NCBI RefSeq assembly: GCF_004122095.1
Contig: NZ_SAWZ01000001.1
Location: 1-64,000 of the forward strand
Source of the DNA: Pseudoxanthomonas composti
GTDB taxonomy: Bacteria > Pseudomonadota > Gammaproteobacteria > Xanthomonadales > Xanthomonadaceae
Reading direction: 5' to 3'
DNA length: 64,000 bases
The translations under genes and the position numbers were made by a program. This document shows, piece after piece, positions 20,177 to 44,441 of this stretch. The notes beneath the pieces are model-generated. The model ran no database searches. It was not told where the DNA came from and saw only the letters and a program-made list of their open reading frames with translations. How positions within the stretch are numbered: the stretch's first letter is position 1; each line of letters opens with the position of its first letter.

Positions 20177-21658
20177 TCAGCCGCGATGACGCAGCTGCAC
20201 GACCCAGCGGCGCATGCGCGGATCGCTCAACACGCTGCCGCCATACAGCAGCGCCCACAGCCCACCGGCGGCGAACAGCCGCAGCCACACGTTGTCCCAA
20301 CCGCTGATACCACTGGTCCGCAGCGCCACCCAGAACAGGCCCGCACCCAGCACGGCGGTGACCACCGCGCGCAGGTCCGGCCAGGCGCGCAGCTCGCGCG
20401 GGCACAGCCACCAGCCCGACAGGCCAAGGAAGGCGTAACAGACCGTGGTGGCGTAGACCGCGCCCATCAGTCCCAGGCTCGGCACCCACCACAGGTTCAA
20501 CAGGATGTTGCCGATGGCGGCGATCAAGGTCAGCGCCAGCACCGTCATCGAGCGCTTGTGCAGCAGCAAGCCGTAGCCGGCGATATCGAACAGCGGATAC
20601 AGCGCGTACTGCGCGCCGATCCAGGCGAACACCGGACCAGACATGGCCTTGTCCGGCCCGCTGACCGCCACGATGGCATCGGTGGCCACGCAGGCGATGG
20701 CCACCGCCACGCCGATGGCCGCATAGGTCATCGGGAACAGCACCTGGCGCTTGAGCGCGCGCACCGCCGCCGGGCCTTGGGTCTCGAAGCGACGGTTGGC
20801 CACCGGTACGAAGGATTCGGACAGCGTGGCATGCATCAGCATGCTGACCTGCAGCGCCAGCGAGTAGCCGATGGTGTAGATGCCCACGGCCGCGTAGTCG
20901 CCGGTCAGCGACTTGAGCATGACCCGGTCGATGGAGATCAGCAGCACGGTGGCGATCTCGTTGATCACCAGCGGCATGCCATAGCGCACCGACTGGGCGA
21001 AGGCGCGCATGTCCAGCTCGCTGCGAGCGAACTGCAGATGACGCAGCACCCAGCGCAGGTAGAAAGCCACCACCAGCCCGGCGGCCAGCAGCTTGCCGCC
21101 ATAGGCGGCCAGGGCCGAGCGTTCCAGCAGCAGCACCGCGCCGACCATGCCGGCCAGCTCCATCCAGCGCCAGATCACGCGCGTGCCGCTGAGCAGGTCC
21201 GAGCGTTCCCCGGCGCGCAGCACCATCTGCACCAGGCTGATGAACACGTTCAGCGGGATGGCCAGCAGCGCGCACCACAGGATCGGCGAAAGCGTCAGCG
21301 CGCGCGCCCAGGCCACCCCGCCGACCACGGCGATGCCGACCGCCCACACCCCACCGGACACCAGCAGCGGCAGCAGGAACAGGTTGGTGGAGAAGCGGCG
21401 CATCGCCTGCGCATCGCCGCCGTAGGGATAGAAGCGCACGATGGCGTGCTGGGCGCCCAGCTTGGCCACGGCGATGGCGATCATCACCCAGGTCTCGTAG
21501 TAACCCAGGATGCCGTACTGGGTGTTGTCCAGCAGCCGCGTGAGCAGCGGGAAGGACACCAGCCCGGCCAGCATGACCAGCAACCCGCTGCTGGCATAGC
21601 GCAGGAAATGGGTACCGACGCCGACGCGGGCCGGCGCGCGCTGGGCGGCCATGGTCAT
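20177..21658 (-). CDS. MOP-superfamily polysaccharide/lipid-linked product flippase (Wzx-like)
   Basis: A 493-residue integral membrane protein with about 12-14 helices in the order typical of the Polysacc_synt/MATE-like MOP family (FLRYASSGLLVMLAGLVSFPLLTRLL at the start; GIYTIGYSLALQVSML mid-protein). It should move a lipid-linked or amphipathic product across the inner membrane. Its ATG overlaps the NRPS stop codon by 4 bp (ATGA), so the two are translationally coupled. That makes it the natural candidate exporter of the NRPS product. A second ATG lies two codons downstream. Confidence 0.85.
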   Translation of the reverse strand: MTMAAQRAPARVGVGTHFLRYASSGLLVMLAGLVSFPLLTRLLDNTQYGILGYYETWVMIAIAVAKLGAQHAIVRFYPYGGDAQAMRRFSTNLFLLPLLVSGGVWAVGIAVVGGVAWARALTLSPILWCALLAIPLNVFISLVQMVLRAGERSDLLSGTRVIWRWMELAGMVGAVLLLERSALAAYGGKLLAAGLVVAFYLRWVLRHLQFARSELDMRAFAQSVRYGMPLVINEIATVLLISIDRVMLKSLTGDYAAVGIYTIGYSLALQVSMLMHATLSESFVPVANRRFETQGPAAVRALKRQVLFPMTYAAIGVAVAIACVATDAIVAVSGPDKAMSGPVFAWIGAQYALYPLFDIAGYGLLLHKRSMTVLALTLIAAIGNILLNLWWVPSLGLMGAVYATTVCYAFLGLSGWWLCPRELRAWPDLRAVVTAVLGAGLFWVALRTSGISGWDNVWLRLFAAGGLWALLYGGSVLSDPRMRRWVVQLRHRG

Positions 21659-24600
21659 GCGCGCGTGGAGGACCGCAGTGCCGCGTCCAGGCAGGCGCGC
21701 AGGCTGCGCGCCGCCTCCGGTTGCTCGATGAAGTCCTCGTGCGTGCCGGGCAGGCGGTGGACCAGGACTTCGCCATCGACCCAGCCCTGCCAGCCCAGCG
21801 TCGCGTCCCACGATGCCCCCTCGCCGCTGCGCAGCAGGGTCACCCCACCGGCATAGCGACGCGGCCTGTAGTCGCGCAAGGCCCGGCGGTGGGCCTGTTC
21901 CACGCGGCGCAGGCGCAGCTCGGTTTCCGGCGCGGTGCTGGCAGAGCGCCAGCGCCGCAGGGCCTGCCAGGCCGCGCGCAGGCGGAAGCGCAGGCGCAGC
22001 GCCAGGCGATCGGGATGCCGCAGGGCCGAGGCCAGCGCATGCCAGTGCAGCGAAGCGGGCAGCACCCCCGGAGCGCGCGTGTCGAGCATCACCAGCAGGC
22101 CCACTTCATTGCCCGCCGCGCGCAGCCTGCGGGCGATTTCCAGGGCGATGATCCCACCCATGGAACCACCGCCGAGCAGGTACGGGCCCTGCGGCTGCAG
22201 CAGGCGGATATCGCGCATGTAGAGATCGGCCATGTCATCGATGGAAGACAACGGCAGCTCCGGCCCCTGCAGGCCACGCGCCTGCAGGCCGTACACCGGC
22301 TGGTCAGGCGGCAGACCGTTCAGCAGCGGCAGATAGTTGAGGACATTGCCGCCCACCGCATGCACCAGGAACAGCGCCGGACGGCGCATGCCGGCGCGCA
22401 GCGGCACCGCCAGCCGTGGCGGCTGACCGGGCGCGGCGGACGTGGCGGCCTGCTGCAGCGCCTGGGCCAGGCCGGCGATGGTCGGGTGCGCGATCAGCGC
22501 CGCCAGCGGAAGCTCCACGCCGTAGTCGCGCGCCAGGTCGGCGAACAGCCGCACCGCCAGCAGGGAGTGCCCGCCCAGCGTGAAGAAATCCTCGTCGCGA
22601 CCGGGCAGCGCACCGCCGAGCAGCCGCGACCAGCGCTGCTGCAGGTCCGCTTCCAGCGCCGAGCGCGGCGCCTGGTCGGCAGCGGCTGCCGCGGGCGGTG
22701 GCGCCGGCAGCGCGCCGGGTGCCGGCAGCGCGCGGCGGTCGATCTTGCCGTTGGGGGTCTTGGGCAGCGCCTCCAGGACCCGCACGTGGTGCGGGCGCAT
22801 GTAGGCCGGCAGGGCCACGCCCAGCGCCTTGCGCAGGGTGTCGGCCAGCGTTGCCTCGGCGCCCTGGCGCGCGGCGGCGTACAGCACCAGCACCTCGTCA
22901 TCGCCGGGATCGCGACGCACCACCGCCACGCATTCGCGCACCCCGGCCACCTGCAGCGCCGCTGCCTCGATCTCGCCCGGCTCGATGCGATAGCCACGCA
23001 GCTTGATCTGGTCGTCGGCCCGCCCCTGGAACAGCAGCGCATCGCCCACCCGCCGCCCCAGGTCGCCGGTGCGGTACATGCGCGCCTGGCCACCGGCGAA
23101 GGGATCGGGCAGGAAGCGCTCGGCAGTGAGTTCGGGCGCATCCAGGTAGCCATCGGCCACGCCGGCCCCGCCGATCCAGATCTCGCCGATGGCGCCGGGC
23201 AGCAGCGGCTGGCGCAGCGCGTCCAGCAGGTACAGCCGGGTCTGCGCGATCGGCCGCCCCAGCGGCACCTGCGCCTGGCCCGGCCGTACCGGGTGCAGGC
23301 TGGACCACACCGTGGTCTCGGTGGGCCCGTAGAGATTCCACAGGTCGCAGCCCAGCGCGCACACGCGCTGGGCCAGCGCCGCCGGCAGGGCCTCGCCACC
23401 CACCAGCATGCGCAGGCCCTCGAACACCTCCAGCTGCCCCACGTCGGCCATCAGCGCCAGCATCGAGGGCGTGGTCTGGAACACCGTGCATTGGTGGCGC
23501 GTGATCAGCCGGCACAGCGCGGCCGGGTCGCGATGCTCGGCATCGTCGGCGATCACCAGCTGCCCGCCGCTGATCAGCGGCAGGTACAGCTCCAGCGCGG
23601 CAATGTCGAAGGACAGCGTGGTGGCCGCGCACAGCACGTCCGCCGCCGCGAACCCGGGCTGGTCGCGCATGCTGCACAGGAAATTGGCCAGGTTGCCATG
23701 GGTGATGCGCACGCCCTTGGGGCGCCCGGTGGAGCCGGAGGTGTACAGGACATAAGCCAGCGCCTCGGGCGAGGGGTGCGGCAAGGCGCCCGCCGGCTCC
23801 GGCCCGTCCAGCAACGCGGCCACGTCCAGCAGGGTGCGGCCCTGGGCCAGCGCCGCCGGCAGCGGCGCCTGGGTGTCCATGAGGATGCGGCTGAGCCCGG
23901 CGTGGTCGGCCATGTACACCAGCCGGCTCTCGGGAAAGGCCGGGTCCAGCGGCACGTAGGCCGCCCCGGCGCGCAGGATGCCCAGCACCGCCAGCAGCAT
24001 GTCCACCCCGCGCGGCAGGCTGACGCCGATGCGCTCGCCGCGGCGCACCCCGGCCCGCAGCAGGGCGCCGGCCAGCTGCCGGCTGCGCAGCTCCAGCGCG
24101 CGGTAGTCCAGCGCCCCCGCGCCGCTGCGCACGGCGATGGACCCGGCATGGCGCTGGCAGGCCGCTTCCAGCATCTGCGTCAGCGTCCACCCTGGCTGCT
24201 CGTCGGCCAGGCAGGGCGGCGGCGCATCGTTGACCCAGGCGAAGTCCGCCAGCGCGCGCGGGCCCACCAGTTGGACGCTGGCCGGCGTGGCCTGTGCGTC
24301 ATCGACCAGTGCGTCCAGGATGCGCAGGTAGGCCTGCCCCCAGCGCTGCACCGTGGCCTGGCTGTACAGCGGGACGGCGTGGTGGATGTTGAGCGTGACC
24401 CCATCCGGGCCCGGGTTCCACAGGAACACCAGCTCCCAGGCGCTGTGCTGGCGCGGCGGGGCTTCCAGTCTTGCCTGCACCGGCCCGAACGCCAGGCGCC
24501 GCATCGCCGGGGCCAGGTTGACCAGGTTCTCCACCAGCAGCATGCGGCCGGGCTCGCGGCGCAGCGGCAGGTGCTGGACGATGCGTCCCAGCGAAATATG

Positions 24601-25653
24601 CTGGTGCGCGGCGGCTTCCTGCATGGCCTGGTGCACCTGGGCCACCAGCGCCTGCAAGGGCTGGCCCGGCTGCAGGCGGATGCGCAGGGGCAAGGTGTTG
24701 TCGGTATCGCCGACCACGCGAGCATGGCCGCCCGCGGCCGCGGCGCCGGCGAACGGCACGCCGCAGACCAGGTCGGTCTGGCCGCTGAGCCGTTGCATCA
24801 GCACGCAATAGGCACTGAGCAGCAGGCTGAAGCGGGTGGTGCCGGCGCGCCGGGCGGCGCCACGCAGGGCGTCCCAGCGCTCGGCGGCAAGTTCCAGCTG
24901 CACATGCCCGCTGCGAAAGTCCAGCTCGGCGCCGCGCGGTGCATCCACCGGCAAGCGCAGCGGCTCGGGGAGCTCGGCGTACACGGACTGCCAATAAGCC
25001 AGGCAACGGCGACCCTCCTCGCCATCGCGGATGCCGCGCTCGCGGGCGACATAATCGGCCCACGGCATGGCCGGCAGCGGCGCGCGGGCGTCCTGCCCGA
25101 TCCGCAGCGCGTACTCGGCCGACAGCTCCTGCAGGGTCAGCCGCAGCGACCAGCCATCCAGGATCAGGTGATGGGCCACCAGCAGCAGCCGCGCATGCTG
25201 CGGCGAAAATACGAACAAGGTCGCCCGCAGCAGCGGCGGCTCGGCGGGATCGAAAGGGGCCAGCATGCGCAGCGTGCGCTGCTGCAGCCAGTCCGGCTCC
25301 GGGTCCGGGGAATCGGAGAGGTCCAGGCATTCCAAGCGGGCCTGGCAGGGCGGCTGGTAACGCTGGTGCAGCCCGTCCTCGGTGAAGGCCATGGCCAGCA
25401 CCTGGTGTCGCGCCACGACGGTGTCGAAGGCCTGCGCCAGCGCCTGCGCCTGCAGGGGCCCGTCCAGGACCAGCTCGACCGACTCGCCGAAGGCCTGCCC
25501 CGCCTGCACGGCATAGCGCGTGCCCAGCCATTTTTCCGCCTGCGCATCGGTCAACGGAATGCAGTCCCCCGCATTCAGCTGGCTGCCGCCCGGCTGTGTC
25601 CCCTGATCCAACCGCCATCCCCTGTTGCTGTTCGCCTGGTGACTCCCAGTCAC
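21655..25653 (-). CDS. Single-module NRPS, C-A-PCP-TE
   Basis: A 1332-residue protein. Condensation domain about 30-440 with intact H-H-L-I-L-D-G (near 159). Adenylation domain about 490-960 with YTSGSTGRPKG near 636 and NLYGPTETT. Carrier domain with the phosphopantetheine serine in GGHSLLAV near 1029. Type I thioesterase about 1060-1320 with G-G-S-M-G-G near 1163 and a late histidine in PGTHEDF. My hand alignment to GrsA gives pocket residues D-I-L-Q-L-G-L-V-W-K, one change from the published glycine code. The start codon is GTG; a TTG at 25611 preceded by GGATGG is an alternative. It would condense an upstream acyl donor with glycine and release it. It is coupled to a flippase. Confidence 0.9.
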   Translation of the reverse strand: MTGSHQANSNRGWRLDQGTQPGGSQLNAGDCIPLTDAQAEKWLGTRYAVQAGQAFGESVELVLDGPLQAQALAQAFDTVVARHQVLAMAFTEDGLHQRYQPPCQARLECLDLSDSPDPEPDWLQQRTLRMLAPFDPAEPPLLRATLFVFSPQHARLLLVAHHLILDGWSLRLTLQELSAEYALRIGQDARAPLPAMPWADYVARERGIRDGEEGRRCLAYWQSVYAELPEPLRLPVDAPRGAELDFRSGHVQLELAAERWDALRGAARRAGTTRFSLLLSAYCVLMQRLSGQTDLVCGVPFAGAAAAGGHARVVGDTDNTLPLRIRLQPGQPLQALVAQVHQAMQEAAAHQHISLGRIVQHLPLRREPGRMLLVENLVNLAPAMRRLAFGPVQARLEAPPRQHSAWELVFLWNPGPDGVTLNIHHAVPLYSQATVQRWGQAYLRILDALVDDAQATPASVQLVGPRALADFAWVNDAPPPCLADEQPGWTLTQMLEAACQRHAGSIAVRSGAGALDYRALELRSRQLAGALLRAGVRRGERIGVSLPRGVDMLLAVLGILRAGAAYVPLDPAFPESRLVYMADHAGLSRILMDTQAPLPAALAQGRTLLDVAALLDGPEPAGALPHPSPEALAYVLYTSGSTGRPKGVRITHGNLANFLCSMRDQPGFAAADVLCAATTLSFDIAALELYLPLISGGQLVIADDAEHRDPAALCRLITRHQCTVFQTTPSMLALMADVGQLEVFEGLRMLVGGEALPAALAQRVCALGCDLWNLYGPTETTVWSSLHPVRPGQAQVPLGRPIAQTRLYLLDALRQPLLPGAIGEIWIGGAGVADGYLDAPELTAERFLPDPFAGGQARMYRTGDLGRRVGDALLFQGRADDQIKLRGYRIEPGEIEAAALQVAGVRECVAVVRRDPGDDEVLVLYAAARQGAEATLADTLRKALGVALPAYMRPHHVRVLEALPKTPNGKIDRRALPAPGALPAPPPAAAAADQAPRSALEADLQQRWSRLLGGALPGRDEDFFTLGGHSLLAVRLFADLARDYGVELPLAALIAHPTIAGLAQALQQAATSAAPGQPPRLAVPLRAGMRRPALFLVHAVGGNVLNYLPLLNGLPPDQPVYGLQARGLQGPELPLSSIDDMADLYMRDIRLLQPQGPYLLGGGSMGGIIALEIARRLRAAGNEVGLLVMLDTRAPGVLPASLHWHALASALRHPDRLALRLRFRLRAAWQALRRWRSASTAPETELRLRRVEQAHRRALRDYRPRRYAGGVTLLRSGEGASWDATLGWQGWVDGEVLVHRLPGTHEDFIEQPEAARSLRACLDAALRSSTRA

Positions 25654-29816: not shown

Positions 29817-32800
29817 CTAAAGGAAGGACGAGCCTGCCAACGGCCACAGGTAGCAGAGCAGGCGCATGGCGCGTCCACCGATGGCGCCGGCACGGGCACC
29901 GAAGCCTGCGCCATCGGCCGCGGCATCGCGCTGGGACGGCTCGGCCGCGGCCGTCATCGCCGGGCGCGAGGCACTTCCCGACAACGCCCGCGCCAGCGCC
30001 GCTGGCAGCTCGGGCGATTCCATCAACGTGGCGTGTCGGCCGCGGATGGACACCACCTCCACCCGCGGCGACATGGCATCCCAGCCCAGCGATGGCCGTG
30101 GATCGCCCTGCTCGCTGGCACGGAACAGCACGATCGGCACATCCATCGGCTGCGGCCGATAGCGCAGGTACGCCTCGTAATGCGCCGCCTCCACGTAGGC
30201 GTAGCGCAGGCTGTGCGGTAGGGCGATCTGCAGGTGCCGGCACACCGATGCGTAGGCGCGGACGCTGCGGCTGCGCAGCCCCTCGCCCAGCCAACGCCAC
30301 AGGCCACCGGCGCGCTGGCGGCGGCTGGGCGCCTGGGCAGGCTGTCCGGGGCCTTCCGGACCAGTTGGATCGTGCGCGGTGTCCGGCTCCAGCGAGGCCA
30401 GGGTGTCGAACAGTCCCAGGAACGCGACCTGCTCGCCCGCCTGTTGCAGCTGGCAGGCGATCTCGTAGGCAATGGCGCCGCCCATCGAGCCGCCGGCCAG
30501 CAGATACGGGCCGGCCGGCTGGACCCGGCGGATCTCCAGCAGATAGCGCCGGGCCATGGACTCGATCCGGCGCAGCGGCGGGGTCTTGCCATCCAGGCCC
30601 ACGGCCTGCAGGCCGTAGATCGCCCGCCCCGGCGGCAGCACTTCGGCCAGGGGCTTGTAGTTCAGGACATTGCCGCCGACAGCGTGGACGAAGAACAGCG
30701 CCGGCTGCCCCGGCGTGCCGGCCCGCATCGGCACCAGCGGCGCCCACGGATCGTCCTGCGGCACCGGGTCGGCCTCATCCACCGCGCCCGCGTCGCGATA
30801 GGCCTGGGCCAGGCCTTGCACCGTCGGCGCGCTCAACAGCGTGGCCAGCGGCAGGTTCACCCCGGTGCGCTGGTTGATCTGGTGGAACAGCTTGACCGCC
30901 GGCAGCGAGTGCCCGCCAAGCCCGAAGAAGTCCTCGTGCCGCCCCACGCTGGGGGTGTCCTCCAGCACGTGCGACATGGTCCGCGCGATGAAGCGCTCCA
31001 GCTGCGTGGCCGGCGCTTCGGCCGGCGTCGGCGCATACAAGGCGTCCGCCGCCTGCGAGGCCAGGGCCGGCATCGCCCCAACGCCCACCAGTTCGGCCGT
31101 CAGCGCATCGGGAAGATCCGGCGACTGCAGCAGGGCGGCGTGGCTGCCGCTGAGGTCGACCACCTTCAGCCGCGGCGACATCGCCTCCCAGCCCAGGCCC
31201 GGGCGCGCATCGCGCTGCTTGCTGGCGCGGAACAGCACCAGCGGCAGGTCCGTCGGCTCCGGGGTATGGCGCAGATACGCCTGGTAGTGCGCGCCTTCCA
31301 CCAGGGTGTAACGCAAGGCATGGGGAAGCTCGCGCCCCAGCACCCGGTACAGCGCCGCACGGGTGTGGCGCTGGCGGCGGTGCACGCCATCGCGCAACCA
31401 GCTCCAGGCCCCGTCCAGCCACGAGGCGCGCGAGTCCATGCGCAGGCGCAGGCGCGACCAGACCCGGCCCACGCCCGGCTGCATGGCCTGCTCCACCCCG
31501 CGCATGTCCGCCTGCAGGGTCGCCAGCGAATCCACCAGGCCCACGAACGCCACCTGCTCGCCGTCGCGGTGCAGCTGGCGGCCGATCTCGTAAGCGATCA
31601 CCCCGCCCATCGACCAGCCCGCCAGGTGATACGGGCCCCTGGGCTGCACGCGGCGGATCTCCTGCGCATACAACCGCGCCATCTCGCGCACGCTGCGCAG
31701 CGGGGCGGTCTTGCCATCCAGGCCGAGTGCCTGCAGCCCGTACACCGGCAGGGCGGCCGGCAAGGCGTCGACCAGTCCCTTGTAGCTCAGCACGTTGCCG
31801 CCGACGGCGTGTACCAGGAACAGCGGGCTGGCCGCTGGCGAGCCCGGCTGCATGCTCACCAGCGGCGCCCAGGGCCCGGCCACGGCGACCACCGCACCGG
31901 GCTGGGAGACCTCGTCCACCGCCCCCGCCGCGCGATAGGCCTGGGCCAGGCCGCGCACGCTCGGCGCATTGAACAACGTGGCCAGCGGCAGGTTCACCCC
32001 GGTCTGCCGGGTGATGCGGTGGAACAGCTTCACCGCCAGCAGCGAGTAGCCGCCCAGCTCGAAGAAGTCCTCGTCCAGGCCGACCGCCGGCAGGCCCAGC
32101 ACCTCGGCCATGATGGTGCCGATGCGCCGCTCCAGTGGCGTGCCCGCCTCGATCTCGGCCGGACGCCGCGGCGCCAGGTCCGTGCGATCGTCCGCTGCGG
32201 CCGTCGCCGGATCGGCTTGCAGAATCTGCGCGGTCGGTTCGGGCAGCGCGCCCAGTTGCTCGAGCTGGCCGTTGAGCCGCAGGCGCGCATGCATGCCGGT
32301 GGGCACCGCCTGGCCATCGCTGGCATCGCGCGGGACGGCCCAGAGCTGCCCGGCCACACCCACCGGGCATGGCTGCCCGAGCGCATCGCGCACATCGCCG
32401 CCCAGTCCGGCGGCGGTCCACTGCGCCAGCCAGGCGCGCTCCTTGTCGCAGCGCAGGTCCACCTCGCCCACCGCCACCGCCGGGTTATCGGCGATGGCCT
32501 TGAGCAAGGTCACGAAACGCTGGTTGATCAGCGCCGCATTGGCCTCGGACAGGATGTCGGTGCTGTAGCCCAGGGCGCCGGACAGGCCGTGTTCGTGCTC
32601 CAGAAACCACAGCCCGATATCGGTATGCATGCCCTTCTGGAAGGTCAGCAGGTGCTCGTGCTCCAGCGCGCCCCAGCGGGTCTGCCGCGCACGCACGTCC
32701 TGGAAGGAGAACAGCGCCTGATAAACCGGCGAGCGCGACAGATCGCGCGGCAGGCGCAAGGCGCGCACCAGCGCCTCGAACGGCACCTCCTGCCAGGCGA

Positions 32801-35800
32801 AGGCCTCCACCACCGCCTGGCGCACCTGGGCGACGAAGGCGTCGAAGGGCAAGGCCGGATCGACGCGCAGCTTCAGCGGCAGCACGTTGACGAAGAAGCC
32901 CATGATGCGCTCCAGCGCCTCCTCGGCGCGGTTGCGCACCGGCAGGCCCACCACCAGCTGCTGCTGGCCGCCCAGGCGGTGCAGCAGCACGAAGTACGCG
33001 GCCAGCAAAGTCATGAACAAGGTCGCGCCGGTGGCATTGCCCACACGCCGCAGGGCGTCGGCCGTGCTGCGGTCCACCTGCACCCATTCGGTGGCGCCCT
33101 GCCCGCTGGCGTGCTTCGGGCGGATGCGATCCTCCGGCAGGCGCAGCGGCTCCAGGCCGCCGGACAGGTGCCGCGTCCAGTAGGTCAAAGCGGCCTGCGC
33201 CTGTGCCGACCCGGCCTGCTGGTGCCACTGGGCGTAGTCGCCGTAGTCCACCTCCAGCGGCGGCAGCGGCGAAGGCTGGCCCTTGCTGAAGGCCTCGTAC
33301 AAGGCCGCCATCTCGCTGTAGAACACGTCGAAGGACCAGCCATCCCAGATCAGATGGTGGGTCATGAAATACAGCACGTGGTCGTCCTGTCCCAGCCGGA
33401 ACAGCCGCGCGCGGAACAGCGGCCATTGCCCGTCGAGCACGAAGGGCGTGGCGGTCATCTGCTCCATCTGCGCCTGCAGCGCGGCGTCGCGCTCGCCCTC
33501 CGGCAGCTCGGACAGGTCCGTCGGCGGCAGCAGCTGCGAGGGGACGTGGTCGAGCGCGCGCTGGCGGGCGTCCTCGCCGGCCTGCACGATCACCGTGCGC
33601 AGGCTGGGCTGGCGCCGCACCATCTCGTCGAAGGCGGCCTGGAAGGCCAGCAGATTCATGGGCCCGCGCAGGCGGTGCGCGGACGGGGTGTTGTAGGCGA
33701 CCGTGCCCGGCTCGACCTGCTCGTAGATCCACAGCCGCTGCTGCATCGGCGTCAGCGGCGCATGCCGCCGATCCTCACGCGGGGTGATGGGCCTGACCCG
33801 GGCCTGCGCCTCGTCCAGGGAAAGCGCGCGCAGCGCGGCCGTCAGCCTGCGCGCGGTCGGCGCTTCGAACACGCAGCGCAGCGGCACGGGCGTGCCCTGC
33901 AGGCGCGTCAGCTCGGCGACCAGGCGTGCGGCCAGCAGCGAGTGGCCGCCGACTTCGAAGAAATGCTCGTCCGCCGCCAGCGCCGCGCGGCCCAGTACCC
34001 GCGCCATGGTGGCCTGCACCTGGGCCTGCAGGGGGTCATCGCTGTCCGGCGAGGCACTTGCCACCGAGTCGCGCCCGGCCGCCGCCGGACGCGGGGCGGC
34101 CAGCTGCGGCGCCGGCAGCGCCTTGCGGTCGATCTTGCCGTTGGGCAGCAGCGGGATGGCGGCCAGCAGCACCAGGTGCTGCGGCACCATGTACTCGGGG
34201 AGCACGCCGCGCAGCCGGGCGCGCAGCTCGGCCTCGTCCAGGGCCAGGCCCGCCTCGGGCACCACGTAGGCGACCAGGCGCGGGTCGTCGGCCCGGTCCT
34301 CGCGCACCATGCAGACCGCGCGGGCCACGCCGGCACAGGCGGCCAGCTGGCTCTCGATCTCGCCCAGCTCGATGCGATAGCCACGCAACTTGACCTGAAA
34401 GTCCAGGCGGCCCAGGTGTTCGAGCTGGCCATCGGCGCGCCAGCGGCCGCGGTCGCCGGTGCGATACAGGCGCGCGCCGCCACCCAGCGTATCGGCGATG
34501 AAGCGCTCGGCGGTCAGCTCCGGGCGATGCAGGTAGCCCAGCGTCACGCCCTGCCCGCCGATGCACAGCTCACCAGGCACGCCCAGCGGGCACGGCAGGC
34601 CATTGGCGTCCAGCACCCAGACCTGGGTGTTGGCGATGGGGCGACCGATGTGGATGTCCGGCGCGCCGCCATCGGTAGCGGCAACGACGCGCGCGCAGGT
34701 CGACCACACCGTGGTCTCGGTCGGGCCGTAGAGGTTCCACAGCGCGCCGCAGCGCGCCAGCAGCGCGGTGGCCAGATCCGAAGGCAGCGGCTCGCCGCCG
34801 CAGAGCGCGCGGAAGTCCGGATGGCCGCGCCATTCGACTTCCACCAGCATCCGCCAGGTCGAGGGCGTGGCCTGCATGACCGTGGCGCCGTGCCGGGTCA
34901 GTAACGCCGCCAGGGCCATGCCATCCATCGCGGTGGCGCGGTCGGCCAGCACCACGCTGGCACCCACCGACAGCGGCAGCATCAGCTCCAGCACGGCGAT
35001 GTCGAAGGACAGCGTAGTCACCGCCACCAGCACGTCGTGGGCCTCCAGCCCCGGCTCGCGCGCCATGCTGGCCAGGAAATTGGCCACCGCCCCATGCGGC
35101 ACGCATACGCCCTTGGGCTGGCCGGTGGAGCCGGAGGTGTAGATCACGTAGGCGACATCGTCCGGCGCGATCGGCGCGGCGGGCACCACCGCACCCGGGT
35201 CCATGGCCGCGATGCGCTCGGCCTGTGCTTCCAGCACCAGCAGGCGCGCCGGCGCGTTGGCGAAGCGTTCCAGCAGGGACTGCTGGGTCAACAGCGCGGC
35301 AAGCCGGGCGTCCTGGACCATGTAGGCCAGGCGCGAGGATGGAAAGTACGGATCCAGCGGCACGTAGCCGGCGCCGCTCTTGAGGATGCCCAGCAGGGCC
35401 GCCAGCATCTGCGGCCCGCGCTCCAGCGCCAGCCCCACCAGATCGCCCTTGCCGATGCCCTCGGCCAGCAGAAAGCGCGCGATGCGATTGGCCTGGGCCT
35501 CCAGTTGCGCATAGCTCAGCGCATCCTGGCCGCTGTGCACGGCGATGGCCAGCGGCGTGCGCGCGGCCTGCAGCTCGTAGGCCCCGTGCATGGTGGCGGG
35601 CACTTCCAGCGCGGTGGCCTCGGGCTGCAAGGCCTCCAGTTCGGCCTTGTGCGCCGCGCTCATCAGCGGCAGTTTGCCCAGCGCGCACGTCGGCTCGGCC
35701 GCCGCGGCCGCCAGCAAGGTGCCGTAGGCCGCCAGCCAGTGGTGCACGGTGGCGGCCTCGAACAGGTCGGTGTTGTATTGGCATTCCAGCCGCAGCCCGC

Positions 35801-37022
35801 CATCGACCTGCACCGCGTTGACCGACAGCTCGAAGTTCTCGTGCGTGCGCGGATTGGTGGTGAAGCTCCCCTGCAGGCCGGTAAAGCCCAGCTTGGGCAG
35901 GTCCAGCGACTGGTCGATGTTGAACATCACGCTGACCAGCGGCAGGCGCGCCGGATCGCGCGGAACCTGCAAGGTCTTGAGCAGGGTGCCGAAGGTGTGG
36001 CGGCCGTGCTCCAGCGCATCCAGCAAGGTCGTCTGCGCCGCGTCCAGCGCGTGCGCGAACGGCAGCGCCGGGTCCACGTCGAAGCGCAGCGGCAGCAGGT
36101 TGACGCAATGGCCGACCAGGCGCTCGTGTCCATCGAAGGACTGGCCGGCGGCGGGGATGCCGATGACCACATCGCGCTCGCCGCTGATGCGCGAAAGCAA
36201 CGTCGAAAACCCGGCCAGCAAGGTCGCGAACAGGCTGGCGCCGCGGCGCGCGCCGGCCTTGCGCACGGCGCCCAGCAGGGCCGCGTCCAGCAGCAGGTCC
36301 TCGCGCGCGGAGGCGAAGGTGCGGCGCGCAGGCCGTGGGCGATCCAGCGGCAGGTCCAGCACCGGCACCGCGTCGGCGAAGCGCGCGGCCCAGTAGCGAG
36401 CATCGGCCTGGGCCTGCGGCCCGTCGGGTTGCGCGGCCAGGGCCAGGGCGTGGTCGGCGTACCCCTCGGCCGGCTCCAGCGGCGCGCCGCTGCGGGTGCT
36501 GTGCCAGGCGTAGGCCTGGCCCAGCTCGCGCACCATCACCCACCACGACCAGCCGTCGCAGACGATGTGGTGGGCATGCATCAGCAGCAGGTGCGAGCCG
36601 GGCGAGAGCCCCAGCAGCTCGGCGCGGAACAGCTCGCCCTGCTCCAGGACGAACGGCGTCTGCACCCCGGCGCGGCGGCGCTCGTTCACGGCGGCGGCCT
36701 GCGCCTGCGGCGACAGCGCCGACAGGTCCAGGCGCTGCAGCACGAAGCTTGAGCGCTCCGGCACCCAGAAGCTCTCGCCATCCGGGCCGATGCCGGCCCG
36801 CAGCGCGTCGTGCGCACGGACGACATCGCCCAGCGCGGCCGCCAGCGCGTCCGCGTCCAGCGCGCCGTCGAGCTGCAGGGCGACCGATTCGTTGTAGGCC
36901 AGGGTCGCCTCGGCTTCCAGCCGCGTGGCCAGCCACAGCTCGCGCTGCGGCTCGGTGGTGGGCACCACCCGGCTCAGCGCTCCCTGCGCGAACGGGTCGT
37001 AGTCCACCCGCCTCGGCGCCAT
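29817..37022 (-). CDS. NRPS, C-A-PCP-C-(deleted A)-PCP-TE-PCP-TE
   Basis: A 2401-residue protein. Domains by approximate residue: C1 20-440 (H-H-I-V-C-D-G near 152), A 500-960 (YTSGSTGQPKG near 631), PCP1 (GGHSLLAAR near 1027), C2 1090-1510 (H-H-L-I-W-D-G near 1224). A 50-residue adenylation remnant (1544-1596), PCP2 (GGYSLLAVK near 1657), TE1 (G-W-S-M-G-G near 1804), PCP3 (GGHSLPAVK near 2035) and TE2 (G-G-S-M-G-G near 2177) follow. The complete A domain reads D-I-L-Q-L-G-L-V-W-K, glycine-like. Module 2 has no working A domain, so PCP2 must be loaded in trans, skipped or inactive. The two PCP-TE blocks are clearly duplicates. The gene starts 22 bp after the PKS/NRPS gene, with a purine-rich ribosome site in the gap. 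Confidence 0.9.
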   Translation of the reverse strand: MAPRRVDYDPFAQGALSRVVPTTEPQRELWLATRLEAEATLAYNESVALQLDGALDADALAAALGDVVRAHDALRAGIGPDGESFWVPERSSFVLQRLDLSALSPQAQAAAVNERRRAGVQTPFVLEQGELFRAELLGLSPGSHLLLMHAHHIVCDGWSWWVMVRELGQAYAWHSTRSGAPLEPAEGYADHALALAAQPDGPQAQADARYWAARFADAVPVLDLPLDRPRPARRTFASAREDLLLDAALLGAVRKAGARRGASLFATLLAGFSTLLSRISGERDVVIGIPAAGQSFDGHERLVGHCVNLLPLRFDVDPALPFAHALDAAQTTLLDALEHGRHTFGTLLKTLQVPRDPARLPLVSVMFNIDQSLDLPKLGFTGLQGSFTTNPRTHENFELSVNAVQVDGGLRLECQYNTDLFEAATVHHWLAAYGTLLAAAAAEPTCALGKLPLMSAAHKAELEALQPEATALEVPATMHGAYELQAARTPLAIAVHSGQDALSYAQLEAQANRIARFLLAEGIGKGDLVGLALERGPQMLAALLGILKSGAGYVPLDPYFPSSRLAYMVQDARLAALLTQQSLLERFANAPARLLVLEAQAERIAAMDPGAVVPAAPIAPDDVAYVIYTSGSTGQPKGVCVPHGAVANFLASMAREPGLEAHDVLVAVTTLSFDIAVLELMLPLSVGASVVLADRATAMDGMALAALLTRHGATVMQATPSTWRMLVEVEWRGHPDFRALCGGEPLPSDLATALLARCGALWNLYGPTETTVWSTCARVVAATDGGAPDIHIGRPIANTQVWVLDANGLPCPLGVPGELCIGGQGVTLGYLHRPELTAERFIADTLGGGARLYRTGDRGRWRADGQLEHLGRLDFQVKLRGYRIELGEIESQLAACAGVARAVCMVREDRADDPRLVAYVVPEAGLALDEAELRARLRGVLPEYMVPQHLVLLAAIPLLPNGKIDRKALPAPQLAAPRPAAAGRDSVASASPDSDDPLQAQVQATMARVLGRAALAADEHFFEVGGHSLLAARLVAELTRLQGTPVPLRCVFEAPTARRLTAALRALSLDEAQARVRPITPREDRRHAPLTPMQQRLWIYEQVEPGTVAYNTPSAHRLRGPMNLLAFQAAFDEMVRRQPSLRTVIVQAGEDARQRALDHVPSQLLPPTDLSELPEGERDAALQAQMEQMTATPFVLDGQWPLFRARLFRLGQDDHVLYFMTHHLIWDGWSFDVFYSEMAALYEAFSKGQPSPLPPLEVDYGDYAQWHQQAGSAQAQAALTYWTRHLSGGLEPLRLPEDRIRPKHASGQGATEWVQVDRSTADALRRVGNATGATLFMTLLAAYFVLLHRLGGQQQLVVGLPVRNRAEEALERIMGFFVNVLPLKLRVDPALPFDAFVAQVRQAVVEAFAWQEVPFEALVRALRLPRDLSRSPVYQALFSFQDVRARQTRWGALEHEHLLTFQKGMHTDIGLWFLEHEHGLSGALGYSTDILSEANAALINQRFVTLLKAIADNPAVAVGEVDLRCDKERAWLAQWTAAGLGGDVRDALGQPCPVGVAGQLWAVPRDASDGQAVPTGMHARLRLNGQLEQLGALPEPTAQILQADPATAAADDRTDLAPRRPAEIEAGTPLERRIGTIMAEVLGLPAVGLDEDFFELGGYSLLAVKLFHRITRQTGVNLPLATLFNAPSVRGLAQAYRAAGAVDEVSQPGAVVAVAGPWAPLVSMQPGSPAASPLFLVHAVGGNVLSYKGLVDALPAALPVYGLQALGLDGKTAPLRSVREMARLYAQEIRRVQPRGPYHLAGWSMGGVIAYEIGRQLHRDGEQVAFVGLVDSLATLQADMRGVEQAMQPGVGRVWSRLRLRMDSRASWLDGAWSWLRDGVHRRQRHTRAALYRVLGRELPHALRYTLVEGAHYQAYLRHTPEPTDLPLVLFRASKQRDARPGLGWEAMSPRLKVVDLSGSHAALLQSPDLPDALTAELVGVGAMPALASQAADALYAPTPAEAPATQLERFIARTMSHVLEDTPSVGRHEDFFGLGGHSLPAVKLFHQINQRTGVNLPLATLLSAPTVQGLAQAYRDAGAVDEADPVPQDDPWAPLVPMRAGTPGQPALFFVHAVGGNVLNYKPLAEVLPPGRAIYGLQAVGLDGKTPPLRRIESMARRYLLEIRRVQPAGPYLLAGGSMGGAIAYEIACQLQQAGEQVAFLGLFDTLASLEPDTAHDPTGPEGPGQPAQAPSRRQRAGGLWRWLGEGLRSRSVRAYASVCRHLQIALPHSLRYAYVEAAHYEAYLRYRPQPMDVPIVLFRASEQGDPRPSLGWDAMSPRVEVVSIRGRHATLMESPELPAALARALSGSASRPAMTAAAEPSQRDAAADGAGFGARAGAIGGRAMRLLCYLWPLAGSSFL
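29950..32150 (-). repeat. Tandem duplicated PCP-TE cassette inside the NRPS gene
   Basis: Two in-frame blocks of about 1.1 kb each (roughly 31060-32150 and 29950-31020) encode carrier plus thioesterase. Shared stretches include TGVNLPLATL, LAQAYR.AGAVDE, HAVGGNVL, GLDGKT.PLR and EIRRVQP.GPY. Both carrier serines and both GxSMGG nucleophiles are intact, so neither copy is an obvious pseudodomain. Boundaries are approximate. Confidence 0.8.
32235..32388 (-). other. Vestigial adenylation domain fragment in NRPS module 2
   Basis: About 50 residues between C2 and PCP2 read D-A-L-G-Q-P-C-P-V-G-V-A-G-Q-L-W and, a little later, L-N-G-Q-L-E-Q-L-G. They match the linker between motifs A5 and A7/A8 of the intact A domain in the same protein (L-P-C-P-L-G-V-P-G-E-L and A-D-G-Q-L-E-H-L-G). 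All ATP- and substrate-binding motifs are gone. This is what an internal in-frame deletion of an A domain would leave. Confidence 0.7.
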
Positions 37023-37044
37023 GTCCGGCGACGCCTTCTCCACC

Positions 37045-40000
37045 TCAGCCGCCCACCTTGAGGTAGCCGCCGGGCTCGGCCTCGTTCGGCACATACCAGC
37101 CGGGTCGGCCGTCGGGATCGAGGCCCAGCCTGGCCCCCGGCACCGGCGGGCGCTGCGCATCCATGTCCAGCCCGGGCATCGTCGGCCGGGCCACCACGCG
37201 CCGCGGCAGCAGGCCCGCGTCCTGCAGCTCCAGCACCGAAGCCTTCCAGGCATCGGCGATGGCGCGCATGTCCGCCTCGGTATGCGCGCTGGTGAAGAAG
37301 CACGGGAAATTGTCGAGGATATGGATGCCGCGGCTGCGCATCATCGCGAACAGCAGGTCCTGCAGCGGATGGTCTTCCTCGAAATACGTGCGCCACAGCG
37401 AGGCGAAGTGCCGCACCTGCAGCGGCGCGCCGACATCGCGGGCGAAGGCGTTGAGCTCCTCGGCCATGGTGGTGGTCAGCGCATTGATGCCGGCCTGCAG
37501 CTGCGGACCACTGGCGATCATGTGGTCCAGCGAGGCATTGGCCGCGGCCAGGGTCAGCGGATGGCGCACAAAGGTGCCGGCGAAATAGGTCACGCCCACC
37601 TCCGGCACCGAGTCGTCGCCGTACTGCCAGCGCCCGCCGTCCAGCGCATCCATGTAGTCGCGCTTGCCGGCGATCACGCCGATCGGGAAGCCGCCACCGA
37701 CCACCTTGCCGTAGGTCGCCAGGTCCGCCTGGATGCCGAACAGCGCCTGCGCCCCGCCCGGATGCGAGCGGAAGCCAGTGATCACCTCGTCGAAGATCAG
37801 CACCGTGCCGCTGGACTGGGTCAGCGTGCGCACCTGCTGCAGGAACTCCACGGGCTGGAAATCCGGCCGGCGGCTCTGCACCGGCTCGACCAGCACCGCG
37901 GCCAGCTCGTGCGCATGTTCGCGCAGGGTGCGCAGGGCGTCCTCGGTGCCGTAGTCCAGCACCAGCACCTGCTCGGCGGTATTGCGCAGGATGCCCGGCG
38001 CGGCCGGCACCGCCTTGCCCTTGGGCGTGGCGCGCACGATCACTTCGTCGTTGATGCCGTGGTAGGAGCCGGTGAACAGCGCGACCTTGCTGCGTCCGGT
38101 CACCGTGCGCGCGATGCGCAGCGCGCCCAGCACCGCCTCCGAGCCGGTATTGCACAGCGCCGCGCGGTCGTGACCGGTGAGCTGGCAGACCTTGCGCGAG
38201 ACCTCGCCCGCCAGCGGATGCTGCGGGCCGATCTCATAGCCCAGCTCCATTTGCCTGAGCACGGCCTGGGTGACGAACTCGGGCTGCCAACCGAACAGGC
38301 TGGCACCGAAGCCGTTGAGCGCATCGACGTACTCGTTGCCATCGATGTCCCACACGCGCGAGCCGCGCGAGCGCTCGATCACGATCTGGTAGACGATCTC
38401 CTTGGTCAGCGGACGGAAACCGGTGACCACGCGCGGGTCGGCCATGTGCGGACGATGCTCGCCGGTGTAGCGCTTGGAACCTGGCGTGCGCGCCTGGTAG
38501 CGCGCCATGAACGCATCCAGCGCGGCGCGCTGCTGCGTATCCAGCGCGATCCCGCCGGTGCTGTCGATGCGGGCAATGGCACCGAAGGCTTTCTTGACGT
38601 CGTAGCGCGCCGGGCCGGCTTCTTCATCGGTCGACGCCGGCGGCACGGGCGTTGCGCTGACCGCTGCCGGCCGCGGGGCCTGCAAAGGCGTCGGCGAGGG
38701 TTGCGGGGCAGGCATCGGCGTGCCCGACAGCAAGGCCAGCTGCTGGGACATCAGCTGCATCTGCTGCTGAATCAGCGCGCGCAGATCATCGCCCACCGGC
38801 AGCGAGCCGGCCTGCGGCAGCGCTACGGGCGCGGCCTGCACGGGCAGCACCGCCGCGGGCGCCGCCACCGCCGTCGGCGTCGCTTGCGCCACCTCGGCCG
38901 GCAGTTGCGCATCCAGCAGCGCGGCCAGCTTGGTGATGCTCGACTGCTCGGCCATCAGCTGACGGAAACCGATCCGCACGGCGAAGGTCTTCTGCAGCTG
39001 CAGGGCCACCTGGGTCAGCGTCAGGCTATCCAGCCCCAGCTCCATGAAATGGGTGTCGCCCTCCTCCACGCCGATCTCGAAACCGGCCACGTCCTCGAAC
39101 AGCTCGCGCAACTGGGCAGACAGCGCGGGAATGCGCGAGGCGGGGGACACGGCGGCGGGGGCAGAGGACATGAACGACTCCTGGGGGGGCGCGGCGGGCA
39201 CCGGGGCTTCCATGGGCCCGGCGGCAGGGGCTGCCTGGACGGCAGCGGGTGCTTCCACCCAATAACGTCGACGCTGGAAAGAATAGGTCGGCAGGCGCAG
39301 GCGAAGGCGCCGGGCGCGTCGGTCCAGGCGCGCCGGGTGCAGCGCGACCCCGGCGCACCACAGTTGGCCGAAGGCGCCGAGCACGGCGGTGCGTTCGTGG
39401 TCGGCCGCATCGCTCAGGGAGGCGATCGCGCTGGCGCCGCTGGCGCGCACCGCCGGGTGCTGGCGCGCCAGCGCGCACAGCGTGCCGCGCGGGCCGATCT
39501 CCAGCAGCAGCGCCTGCGGGGACTCGGCCAGGGTGGACAGGGCCGAGGCGAAGCGGACAGGCTCGCGCAGGTGCCGTGCCCAGTAATCGGCGGACACCGC
39601 GGTCTGGGCATCCAGCCACTGGCCGGTGGCGCTGGAGACGATGGGCAACGTGGGCGCCTGGCGGGCGACGGCCTCCAGGGCGACGCGGAACGGCGCCACG
39701 ACCGGGTCCATCATCGCCGAATGGAACGCGTGCGAGGTCCGCAGCGGACGGCACGCCACGCCCTGCTCGGTCAGCTGCGCCTGCAGGGCATCCACCTGCG
39801 GCTGCGGCCCGGCCACCACGCAGGCTCCCGGCGCGTTCTCCGCAGCCAGGCACAGGTCTTGGCTGAGCAAAGGCAACAGCCGCTCGGCGTCCATGCGCAC
39901 CGACAACATGCTGCCGGCTGGCTGCGCCTGCATCAGGCGCCCCCGCAAGGCCACCAGTCGCATCGCGTCTTCCAGGGCGAACACCCCGGCCAGGGTGGCC

Positions 40001-43000
40001 GCGACGAACTCGCCCACACTGTGTCCCACCATTGCCGTGGGCTGCAGGCCCTGCGCCATCCACCAGCGCGCCAGCGCGTACTCCAGCGCGAAGATCGCCG
40101 GCTGCATCACCGCCGTGGGAACCAGCGCCTGGGCGTCCTCGCCGAAGGCCAGCGTGCGCAGATCGGCCCCCAGTTCGGCTTCCGCCGCCCGGGCGCAGGC
40201 ATCGAAGGCCTCGCGGAACGCCGGCTCGGCCGCATACAGCGCCCGGCCCATGCCGGCGTACTGCGCCCCCTGGCCCGGGAACATGAACACCAGCGGCCGG
40301 CGCGCCGCATCGTCGGCAGTGCCGGCGGCCTTGCTGACGCGCAGGGCCTGGACCGCGCCCGCCGCGTCCTGCGCCGCCACCGCCAGCCGATACGGAAAGG
40401 CACGACGGCCATCGGCCAGCGTCCACGCCACGTCGGCCAGGTTGAGACCCGGCTGGCGCTCCAGGGCATCGGCCAGCGCCGCAGCCATCTGCTCCAGGGC
40501 CGCCGGCGCGCGCGCGGACAGCACCAGCAGCTGCGGCCCATCGGCCGGGTCCGAAGCGACCTGCTCGGGGGCCTGTTCGATCACCACGTGCGCGTTGGTG
40601 CCGCCGACGCCGAAGGAGCTGACACCGGCCCGGCGCGGCGCGCCATCGGCCTGCGGCCAGGCCTCGGTGCCGGCGCTGACGGTGAACGGCGTGCGCGCAA
40701 AATCGATGGCCGCACTCGGCGCGCGGTAATGCGCCGTACCCGGGAGGCGGCCTTCGGCCACCGACAGGGTGGCCTTGATCAACCCGGCCGCGCCCGCGGC
40801 CATCAGGGTATGGCCGATGTTGCTCTTGACCGAGCCGACCCGGCAGAAGCCCAGATCGGAGGTGCTGGCGGCAAAGGCGCGGGCCAGGCCCTCGATCTCG
40901 ATGGGATCGCCCATCGGCGTGGCCGTGCCATGCGCTTCGACATAGCCGATCTCGCGCGCCTGCACCTGGGCATCGGCGTGCGCCATGGCGATCACCGCCG
41001 CCTGGCCCTCGCTGCTGGGCGCGGTAAAGCTGGCCTTGCCGGCGCCATCGTTGTTCAAGCCGGTGCCACGGATCACCGCCTGGATCGGGTCGCCATCGGC
41101 CAGCGCATCGGCCAGCCGCTTGAGCACCAGCACCGCGGCGCCATCGCTGAACACCGTGCCGCCGGCCGAGGCATCGAAGCTGCGCGTATGGCCATCGGGC
41201 GAGAGCATCGCGTCGGGCTGGTAGAGGTGGCCGCTGTTGACCGGACAGGTGATGGCCACGCCACCGGCCAAGGCCATGTCGCAGCGCCCTGCGCGCAGGC
41301 TGTCCACCGCCTGGCACACGGCCACCAGCGAGGTCGAGCACGCGGTCTGCACCGTGATCGCCGGGCCGGTGAGGTCCAGGCGATGGGCCACGCGCACGGC
41401 CAGGTAATCCTTTTCGTTGCCCAGCATCACCTGGAAGGCGCCCGCGCGCTCGACCTTGTCCGGGTGCGCCAGCACGTTGTGCTGGTAGTAGCTGGCGTTG
41501 TACATGCCGGCGAACACGCCTACCGGCCCCAGCTCGGGCCCTGGCGCATGGCCGGCGCGCTCGATCGCCTCCCAGCACAGTTCCAGGAAGATCCGCTGCT
41601 GCGGGTCCATCAGTTCCGCTTCGCGCGGCGAGATGCCGAAGAAGCCGGCATCGAACAGGTCATGGCCCTCCAGCACGCCCCGCGCCGGAACGTAGGCCGG
41701 GTCATCGCGCAGTGCCGGGGCGATGCTGGGATCGAGCTGGCCAGGCGTGAAGCGCGTAATCGAATCCACGCCCTCGCACAGGTTCCGCCAGAACGTCTCC
41801 ACGTCCTGCGCGCCCGGCACGCGCGCGGCCATGCCCACGATGGCGATCGGCTCGCGCAGGTTGCGCGCCTGCGTCCTGGGCAGGCGGCGGCCGGGGATGG
41901 CCGTGGCCGACCCGTCCAGCTCGACAGCCAAGCCTGCCGGCGTGGGCGAACGGAAGATTGCCGTGGGCGGCAGCGGCCCCAGCCCGGCGGCCTGGATCCG
42001 CTGCAGCAGGCGCATGGCCAGCAGCGAACTGCCGCCCAGCTCGAAGAAGCCATCGTCGCGGCCCAGCCCGTCCAGGCCGAGGACCTCGCCGAACAGCGCG
42101 CACAGCGTGGCTTCCCGCGCATCGCGCGGCGCCGCGTACGGCCCGGCCCAGTCGGGACGGTCACGCGCCGGCGCCGGCAGCGCACTGCGCTCCAGCTTGC
42201 CGTTGGGCGATGTCGGCAGCGCCTGCAGGCGCACGAACGCCGACGGCAGCATGTAGTCCGGCAGCTGCTGGGCCAGCGCGCCGCGCAGTGCATCGACCAC
42301 GCCCTGGGCGCCATCGGCCACCACGTAGGCCACCAGGCGTCGCAGCCCCGGTACGTCCTCGCGCGCGACCACTGCGGCCTGGCGCACGCCCGGCAGGCCC
42401 AGCAGGCAGGCTTCCACCTCGCCCGGCTCGACCCGGTGTCCACGGATCTTGACCTGGAAGTCGGCACGGCCCAGGCACTCCAGCGTGCCATCGGCCTGCC
42501 AGCGCCCCAGGTCGCCGCTGCGATACATGCGCGCACCGGGAGCGTTGGAGAACGGATCGGGCACGAAGCGCTCGCCGGTCAGGTCATCGCGGCCCAGATA
42601 ACCATCGGCCAGCACCGGACCGGCCAGGAACAGCTCGCCGGCCACGCCGTTGGGCACGTGCCGGCCCTGCCGATCCAGCACGTAGACGCGGGCGCGCTGG
42701 ATCGGCGTGCCGATCGCCGGCAGCATCGGCCACAGCGCCGCATCCGGCGCCAGCGTCAGCGCGGTGATGACGTGGGTCTCGGTGGGCCCGTAGTGGTTGT
42801 GCAGTCGCGCGCCGGTGGCCTGGAACAAGCGCCGGATGCGCGGCTCGATCCGAAGCGCCTCGCCCGCGGTGATCACCTGCTTCAGGGCCAGCGCGGGGAG
42901 CGTGTCCACTGCCGCGGCCTCGTAACCTTCGGCCAGCATCTGCAACGCGAAGTACGGCAGGAAGATGCGCTCGATGCGATGGTCAGCCAGGAACGCCAGC

Positions 43001-44322: not shown

Positions 44323-44441
44323 CTCGGACGCTCCGAATGTCCTATGTTGCGTCTTGCCCCCGTCCAAGGGAACGCACGACACATCACCAGACGGACACGC
44401 ATCGCAAAATAGCAGGTGCGCCGTGAACGGGCCCAAGTCTG

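What the first reader, a model, noticed from the sequence alone, without database searches (positions are those of the whole stretch)
29950..32150. NRPS ending in two consecutive carrier-thioesterase cassettes (PCP-TE-PCP-TE)
Tandem TE-TE ends are known in some lipopeptide synthetases, but here a whole PCP-TE block is repeated in frame, with both carrier serines and both GxSMGG nucleophiles intact. The first TE is therefore internal and the second PCP has no condensation or adenylation domain before it. This could mean chain transfer from TE1 to PCP3, parallel release, oligomerisation of two chains as in iterative depsipeptide synthetases, or a recent duplication with no new role.
Basis: partly seen in the sequence, partly recalled or inferred. 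Interest (0 to 1): 0.8.

Follow-up and report, generated by a model that had tools for sequence, protein, structure and literature searches.

The report
Peptide synthetase with doubled carrier-release end
A bacterial peptide-making enzyme ends in two intact, long-diverged copies of its carrier-and-release unit behind a module that has lost its own loading domain, an arrangement we did not find in the other genomes searched and whose purpose still has to be tested.

Summary
One open frame (29817-37043, minus strand) reads C-A-PCP-C-PCP-TE-PCP-TE; both carrier serines and both Ser-Asp-His triads align as intact, and each PCP-TE half models confidently. The duplication is not recent: copies are 58% identical and close to synonymous saturation. 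They are each other's closest kin, within a TE clade from related A-less modules. In one genus, 11 of 12 genomes read C-PCP-TE-PCP, so a carrier behind an internal TE is a stable design. TE2 keeps the family pattern; the PCP2-TE1 block departs at 7 of 57 otherwise invariant columns, one beside the nucleophile. The copies' proteins diverged fast for their synonymous distance, which fits a changed role or relaxed constraint. The genome's only clear NRPS A domains and strong TE domains lie in this cluster. Most likely the orphan carriers are charged in trans, TE2 releases the product, and TE1 has a diverged side role (editing or shuttling). The mechanism is untested. New variant of a known kind.

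The parts
29817..37043 (-). NRPS gene, C-A-PCP-C-[A trace]-PCP2-TE1-PCP3-TE2, 2408 aa from GTG
   Evidence: translation and Pfam
35619..36944 (-). C1 domain
   Evidence: Pfam PF00668; boundaries from script
34119..35576 (-). A1 domain, pocket DILQLGLVW (Gly-like, recalled)
   Evidence: Pfam, TIGR01733 440 bits
33804..34013 (-). PCP1
   Evidence: Pfam PF00550, phmmer
32433..33767 (-). C2 domain, HHLIWDG present; in the clade of C2 domains that are followed by an A domain
32250..32393 (-). weak trace of an A domain (A6-A8 region, motif names recalled) where the module-2 A domain is missing
   Evidence: two colinear matches; profile score 6.4 bits, passed by 1 of 2000 shuffles
31929..32153 (-). 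PCP2, carrier Ser in GGYS
31104..31865 (-). TE1, GWSMGG, triad S1881/D1908/H2038; 6 of the 7 departures of its PCP2-TE1 block from 57 family-invariant columns lie here
30804..31013 (-). PCP3, carrier Ser in GGHS
30009..30740 (-). TE2, GGSMGG, triad S2256/D2283/H2407; keeps the family pattern
37045..44484 (-). upstream hybrid synthetase A-PCP-KS-AT-ACP-aminotransferase (start not settled)
   Evidence: Pfam
21655..25653 (-). separate C-A-PCP-TE protein with the same A pocket as A1; its TE is from another clade
46424..47206 (-). 4'-phosphopantetheinyl transferase superfamily gene
   Evidence: PF01648
44909..46303 (-). XrtA/EPS-type sugar-phosphate transferase beside the cluster
   Evidence: TIGR03013 535 bits
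20177..21811 (-). polysaccharide flippase-like protein next to the C-A-PCP-TE gene (start as listed overlaps that gene, so probably later)
   Evidence: PF01943; synteny

Best explanation
It is the terminal module of an A-PCP-KS-AT-ACP-AMT / C-A-PCP-C-PCP assembly line. The module lost its own A domain, and its usual last carrier was replaced by a PCP-TE cassette that was then doubled. Inferred working: the peptidyl chain comes from PCP1; glycine (predicted) is put on PCP2, PCP3 or both in trans by A1 or by the A domain of the C-A-PCP-TE protein at 21655; C2 makes the last bond. TE2, which keeps the family pattern, releases the product. TE1, with an intact triad but altered around it, has a separate job, most likely clearing or moving acyl groups on the neighbouring carriers (an in-line version of a type II TE). 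Shown: architecture, intact residues, kinship and long divergence of the copies, missing A. Inferred: trans charging and division of labour.
For: Both copies open, with triads and carrier serines intact after long divergence. PCP2-TE1 departs from 7 of 57 columns invariant in 21 other sequences (6 of them in TE1), PCP3-TE2 from 1 of 57, other rows from 0-3 of 57-60. Both halves model as PCP-TE didomains, mean pLDDT 82.8 and 83.9; best PDB matches are 4zxh and 3tej, the latter listed as enterobactin synthase component F. Only three A domains over the TIGR01733 cut-off exist in the genome, all in this cluster. All 11 module-2 A domains read from relatives have DILQLG[LM]VW; A1 and A3 have DILQLGLVW. 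The three strong PF00975 matches of the genome (91-103 bits) are all in this cluster; three more pass the cut-off weakly (27-32 bits) and were not examined, so no clear free-standing type II TE was seen. Of 19 loci whose module 2 lacks A, 15 carry a TE and 3 a hydrolase-like domain in the same chain; of 11 loci with A, none does.
Against: No biochemical data. The tandem is in one genome only, so conservation of the arrangement itself cannot be shown. For their synonymous difference (0.41) the copies' proteins diverged fast: pN/pS 0.65, against 0.28-0.38 for the three g45 species pairs (synonymous difference 0.35-0.49) and 0.38 for the G638 pair; this fits a changed role but equally relaxed constraint. 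The invariant-column count is unbalanced: 10 of the 21 comparison rows are close relatives from g45. The A/TE association is not phylogenetically independent (17 of the A-less C2 domains form one clade). The pocket reading is recalled, not computed against a reference structure.
Confidence: 0.4

Rival explanations
1. Parallel redundant release: C2 serves either PCP2 or PCP3, each with its own TE, and both TEs do the same reaction, raising throughput.
For: Both carriers and both triads intact; a review passage says both teixobactin tandem TEs can cyclise.
Against: TE1 and TE2 diverged unequally; 45% of TE positions differ.
Confidence: 0.19
2. Duplication without a role: TE1 or TE2 is tolerated and slowly decaying.
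For: Single genome; the PCP2-TE1 block lost 7 family-invariant residues; pN/pS of the copies is 0.65, well above that of g45 species pairs at similar synonymous difference.
Against: Synonymous sites near saturation while triads, carrier serines and frame stay intact; TE1 still models confidently.
Confidence: 0.19
3. Oligomerising end: TE1 holds a first chain or passes it to PCP3, and TE2 joins two chains.
For: Order PCP-TE-PCP-TE gives two waiting stations; TE-catalysed cyclo-dimerisation is known (passage).
Against: Known oligomerising TEs manage with one PCP-TE (recalled); no product known.
Confidence: 0.1
4. In-line shuttle: TE1 moves aminoacyl groups from the A-bearing modules onto the A-less carriers, as SyrC and LgnA do as separate proteins.
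For: A-less module; no clear free-standing type II TE in the genome; TE-catalysed carrier-to-carrier transfer reported for LgnA; SyrE/SyrB1/SyrC precedent.
Against: A1 could charge the carriers directly; TE1 is kin to release-type TEs behind carriers.
Confidence: 0.12

Closest known systems
Syringomycin synthetase SyrE module 9 (C-T-TE without A; SyrB1, SyrC)
   Same: last module is C-T-TE and has no A domain; loading must come in trans
   Different: one PCP-TE only; the partner is a stand-alone A-T plus separate shuttle, while here the candidates are A1 and a C-A-PCP-TE protein
Tandem TE-TE ends (lysobactin, arthrofactin, teixobactin, many Pseudomonas lipopeptides)
   Same: two TE domains at the end of one NRPS; division of labour reported for some
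   Different: there the TEs are in tandem behind one carrier; here each TE has its own carrier
C-A-PCP-C-PCP-TE-PCP synthetases of the related genus g45 (this work)
   Same: A-less module 2, internal TE of the same clade, carrier after the TE, mostly the same neighbours
   Different: the last carrier is another PCP type and has no TE behind it
G638 cluster (other family, this work)
   Same: A-less C-PCP-TE and a second, sister PCP-TE in the same cluster
   Different: the second copy is on a separate A-PCP-TE protein; independent duplication
LgnA type II TE of legonmycin biosynthesis
   Same: TE-type enzyme moving aminoacyl groups between carriers
   Different: free-standing protein; function of TE1 here unknown

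Membership tests
Type I thioesterase domain (PF00975) | GxSxG nucleophile, Asp and His of the triad | tested here: met
   both copies in invariant columns of 23 sequences and aligned to 4zxh
Type I thioesterase domain (PF00975) | alpha/beta-hydrolase fold behind a carrier domain | tested here: met
   models pLDDT 82.8/83.9; match 4zxh and 3tej, TM-score 0.53-0.59 over the whole didomain
Tandem TE-TE termination module | two TEs in one terminal protein | tested here: met
Tandem TE-TE termination module | TEs adjacent, one shared carrier | tested here: not met
   PCP3 lies between TE1 and TE2
A-less C-T-TE module charged in trans (SyrE type) | C-T-TE without A | tested here: met
   no AMP-binding match between C2 and PCP2
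A-less C-T-TE module charged in trans (SyrE type) | stand-alone A-T partner | tested here: not met
   the A domains over the cut-off are in the three synthetases of this cluster; none is a free A-T
A-less C-T-TE module charged in trans (SyrE type) | carrier actually charged in trans | not testable with these tools
   needs in vitro loading
Oligomerising TE | joins two or more chains | not testable with these tools
   product unknown

The most novel reading that the evidence does not exclude
TE1 is an in-line acyl or aminoacyl transferase, not a release enzyme: it moves building blocks or chains between the A-less carriers PCP2 and PCP3 (and perhaps from the A-bearing carriers), so that one polypeptide contains both a built-in shuttle and the true release TE.
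Probability: 0.13. Interest if true: 0.75.

Novelty: new variant of a known kind. Interest (0 to 1): 0.5.

Why it matters
It gives a natural, covalently linked system in which carrier-to-TE pairing, trans charging of A-less carriers and the role of internal TEs can be tested with small didomain proteins. It also sits in a cluster family whose last module was rebuilt repeatedly (A-PCP, PCP-hydrolase, PCP-TE, PCP-TE-PCP, PCP-TE-PCP-TE), which is useful for synthetase engineering.

Tried and rejected
Assembly artefact: rejected, since the copies are only 69% identical at DNA level. Recent duplication: rejected on synonymous divergence. Cassette copied from the TE protein at 21655: rejected by the TE tree. 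PCP3 as the relatives' usual last carrier: rejected, mean identity 0.29 to that class (27 sequences) against 0.48 to other PCP-TE carriers (21 sequences) and 0.67 to PCP2. Exosortase A link: TIGR03109 found in 0 of 38 genus genomes, although the neighbouring transferase is of the XrtA-associated family. An A-domain-like match elsewhere in the genome (C1:680292, 189 bits, below the cut-off) looked by eye like an acyl-CoA or acetate ligase; the eight weaker matches were not examined. dN/dS gave no clean age because codon bias caps synonymous differences. The A-domain trace is weak: single phmmer matches were not significant, and 1 of 2000 shuffles scored above it.

Literature: the notation was not found and 90 of the open PMC library (one search's one paper is about nucleosomes); subscription papers were not covered. 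One search returned nothing; some searches served for precedents.

Limits of the search for other tandems: the genus search scored all candidates in 38 genomes; the family, order, class and phylum searches (395, 398, 369 and 398 genomes, overlapping) scored at most 2-3 candidates per genome at strict E-values. Of 235 plasmid records with matches (20 listed), 8 have one place covering 80% or more of the query; the 7 of these that were listed span about 1 kb, too short for a tandem. Of 56 genome-contig loci, my script saw a TE in 24; 5 rows were flagged with two TEs, of which three (L034, L036, L048) look like adjacent TE-TE and two (L046, L055) like one TE found in pieces; none shows PCP-TE-PCP-TE.

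Rows left out: of 18 other genus genomes with a match, G014 and G026 were not read. G097, G124, G469 and G482 were fetched and annotated but not counted, because no A-PCP-KS-AT-ACP-AMT synthetase was seen in the stretch read. The C tree used 71 of 103 C domains (those over 300 residues, genome-contig loci left out). The TE tree used 58 TEs; its named loci are 24 of the 56. One g45 row identical to another was left out of the alignments.

Full report
OBSERVATION. The frame 29817-37253 on the minus strand is open; the likely start is GTG at 37043, one base after the stop of the upstream gene. Pfam gives two Condensation, one AMP-binding, three PP-binding and two Thioesterase stretches. The order is C-A-PCP-C-PCP2-TE1-PCP3-TE2. 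GC by codon position is alike in both copies. DNA repeats of 175 nt at 84% and 178 nt at 76% link the copies; the aligned blocks share 203 of 351 residues and 69% of DNA positions.

CATALYTIC RESIDUES. In an alignment of 23 PCP-TE blocks (3 from the window, 20 from related loci) the carrier serine and the TE Ser, Asp and His columns are invariant. In the alignments with 4zxh, an NRPS of four domains, the Asp and His match and the nucleophile position is a Cys there. Both halves give confident models (mean pLDDT 82.8 and 83.9; a stretch under 50 at model residues 220-255 and 215-249, where TE lids usually lie, recalled). Their best PDB matches are 4zxh and 3tej, TM-score 0.53-0.59 over the didomain.

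No AMP-binding match lies between C2 and PCP2. The gap from C2 to the next PCP is 94 residues here, 531-581 in the 11 related chains with an A domain, and 37-67 in the 18 related chains without one. The window's stretch holds two colinear weak matches to the A6-A8 region of A domains (motif names recalled). It scores 6.4 bits against an A-domain profile. Of 2000 shuffles, 1285 returned a score, the best 6.5. Of 79 control stretches of the same protein, 45 returned a score, the best -0.5. Of 8 linkers of A-less relatives, 5 returned a score, the best 1.8. I take it as a probable, not certain, remnant.

SURROUNDINGS. Upstream is an A-PCP-KS-AT-ACP-aminotransferase synthetase, downstream a C-A-PCP-TE protein. 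A phosphopantetheinyl transferase, an XrtA/EPS-type sugar transferase and a flippase-like gene flank the cluster. The sugar transferase lies within about 8 kb of the synthetases in 15 of the 17 genus loci read, counting the window (with coordinates from 17 and 18); in G013 and G029 it is on another contig.

COMPARISON. Loci counted: the window, 16 of the 18 other genus genomes with a match, 11 of a second genus (g45), G134 and G638. Module 2 has an A domain in 11 loci (G002, G006, G007, G013, G017, G025, G028, G029, G031, G036, G037), none with a TE found in that chain (phmmer with the window's domains). It lacks A in 19 (window, G003, G004, G012, G018, G023, 11 of g45, G134, G638). Of these, 15 carry a TE, 3 (G004, G012, G023) an exosortase-associated-hydrolase-like domain below the family cut-off, and G018 neither. 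In g45, 11 of 12 genomes read C-A-PCP-C-PCP-TE-PCP; the twelfth (G113) had no match at 1e-12. G638 has an A-less C-PCP-TE plus a separate A-PCP-TE.

HISTORY. TE tree (58 rows): TE1 and TE2 are sisters (100/99), joined to the TEs of G003 and g45 (98/85); the TE of 21655 groups with C-A-PCP-TE proteins of the genus (99/95); the two PCP-TE TEs of G638 are sisters (100/97), an independent duplication. C tree (71 rows): window C2 lies among C2 domains followed by an A domain (99/98), not in the A-less clade of 17 rows (100/99); the A-less C2 of G134 lies outside both on a long branch. The two trees disagree, so the simplest story is that an A-bearing module lost its A and received a PCP-TE cassette of the A-less type, which was doubled.

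AGE AND CONSTRAINT. Synonymous difference between the copies is 0.41; 50 draws of synonymous codons from this gene's usage give 0.43-0.54, mean 0.48. The doubling is therefore not recent, though not fully saturated. Against a simple reading of strong constraint: three g45 species pairs with synonymous difference 0.35, 0.44 and 0.49 keep 85, 75 and 78% protein identity (pN/pS 0.28-0.38), whereas the copies keep 58% (pN/pS 0.65). So the proteins diverged fast, by a change of role, by relaxed constraint, or both.

DIVISION OF LABOUR. PCP3-TE2 departs from 1 of 57 columns invariant in the 21 other sequences, PCP2-TE1 from 7. One of these, in the carrier, is shared by both copies; six are in TE1, including Gly to Trp beside the nucleophile and Thr to Ser beside the catalytic Asp. 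Other rows depart at 0-3 of 57-60, but ten of them are close g45 relatives; the lone rows G003, G134, G638 (two) and the TE of 21655 show 1-3. A Trp at that place also occurs in other NRPS TEs (7crn and 4zxh, alignments), so it does not imply loss of activity.

CHARGING. Three A domains of the genome pass the TIGR01733 cut-off, all in this cluster; nine further matches are below it. A1 and A3 read DILQLGLVW and all 11 module-2 A domains read from relatives DILQLG[LM]VW at nine pocket positions that I picked by motif; that this means glycine, and DVQFIAHV in the first module proline, is recalled. So the lost A had a substitute with nearly the same predicted pocket. Three strong PF00975 matches exist in the genome, all here; three more pass the cut-off at 27-32 bits and were not examined. 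No clear free-standing type II TE was seen.

KNOWN PRECEDENTS. SyrE ends in C-T-TE without A and is served by SyrB1 and the shuttle SyrC (PMC8949500, section 4.1 read). Lysobactin, arthrofactin and teixobactin have tandem TEs whose roles differ between systems (PMC8949500 and PMC11735501, passages). LgnA shows TE-catalysed transfer between carriers (PMC8748450, abstract and passages). Enduracidin has one type I TE domain and two type II TEs (PMC13320435, abstract and passages). Xanthomonas albilineans holds single-module C-A-PCP-TE genes overlapping glycosyltransferase genes (PMC3849588, passages). PCP-TE-PCP-TE was not found by name.

VERDICT. A real, intact and long-diverged PCP-TE-PCP-TE end on an A-less module, known to us from this one genome. 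Mechanism committed to: trans-charged carriers, TE2 releases, TE1 has a diverged side role; confidence 0.40.

Noticed in passing
L138-L147, L155 (genus g45): Eleven of twelve genomes end the homologous synthetase in PCP-TE-PCP, a carrier behind an internal TE.
   Followed up: partly
25737-27251 and 28289-29728 (+): Two tandem paralogues, 382 of 468 aligned residues identical, no Pfam match at 1e-5; G002 also has two copies in its cluster.
   Followed up: partly
L105:2560-3768, L106:14571-15782, L109:5095-6291: NRPS proteins ending in a carrier fused to a domain resembling exosortase-A-associated hydrolase 2, below the family cut-off; the usual nucleophile motif is not evident by eye.
   Followed up: partly
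L151-L152 (G638): A-less C-PCP-TE protein with a separate A-PCP-TE protein in one cluster; the two TEs are sisters.
   Followed up: partly
44909-46303: XrtA/PEP-CTERM-type sugar transferase present over the cut-off in 32 of 38 genus genomes although exosortase XrtA was found in 0 of 38.
   Followed up: partly
29817-29960: The C-terminal tail after TE2 looks by eye unlike the short basic tail that follows the last carrier in several relatives.
   Followed up: no
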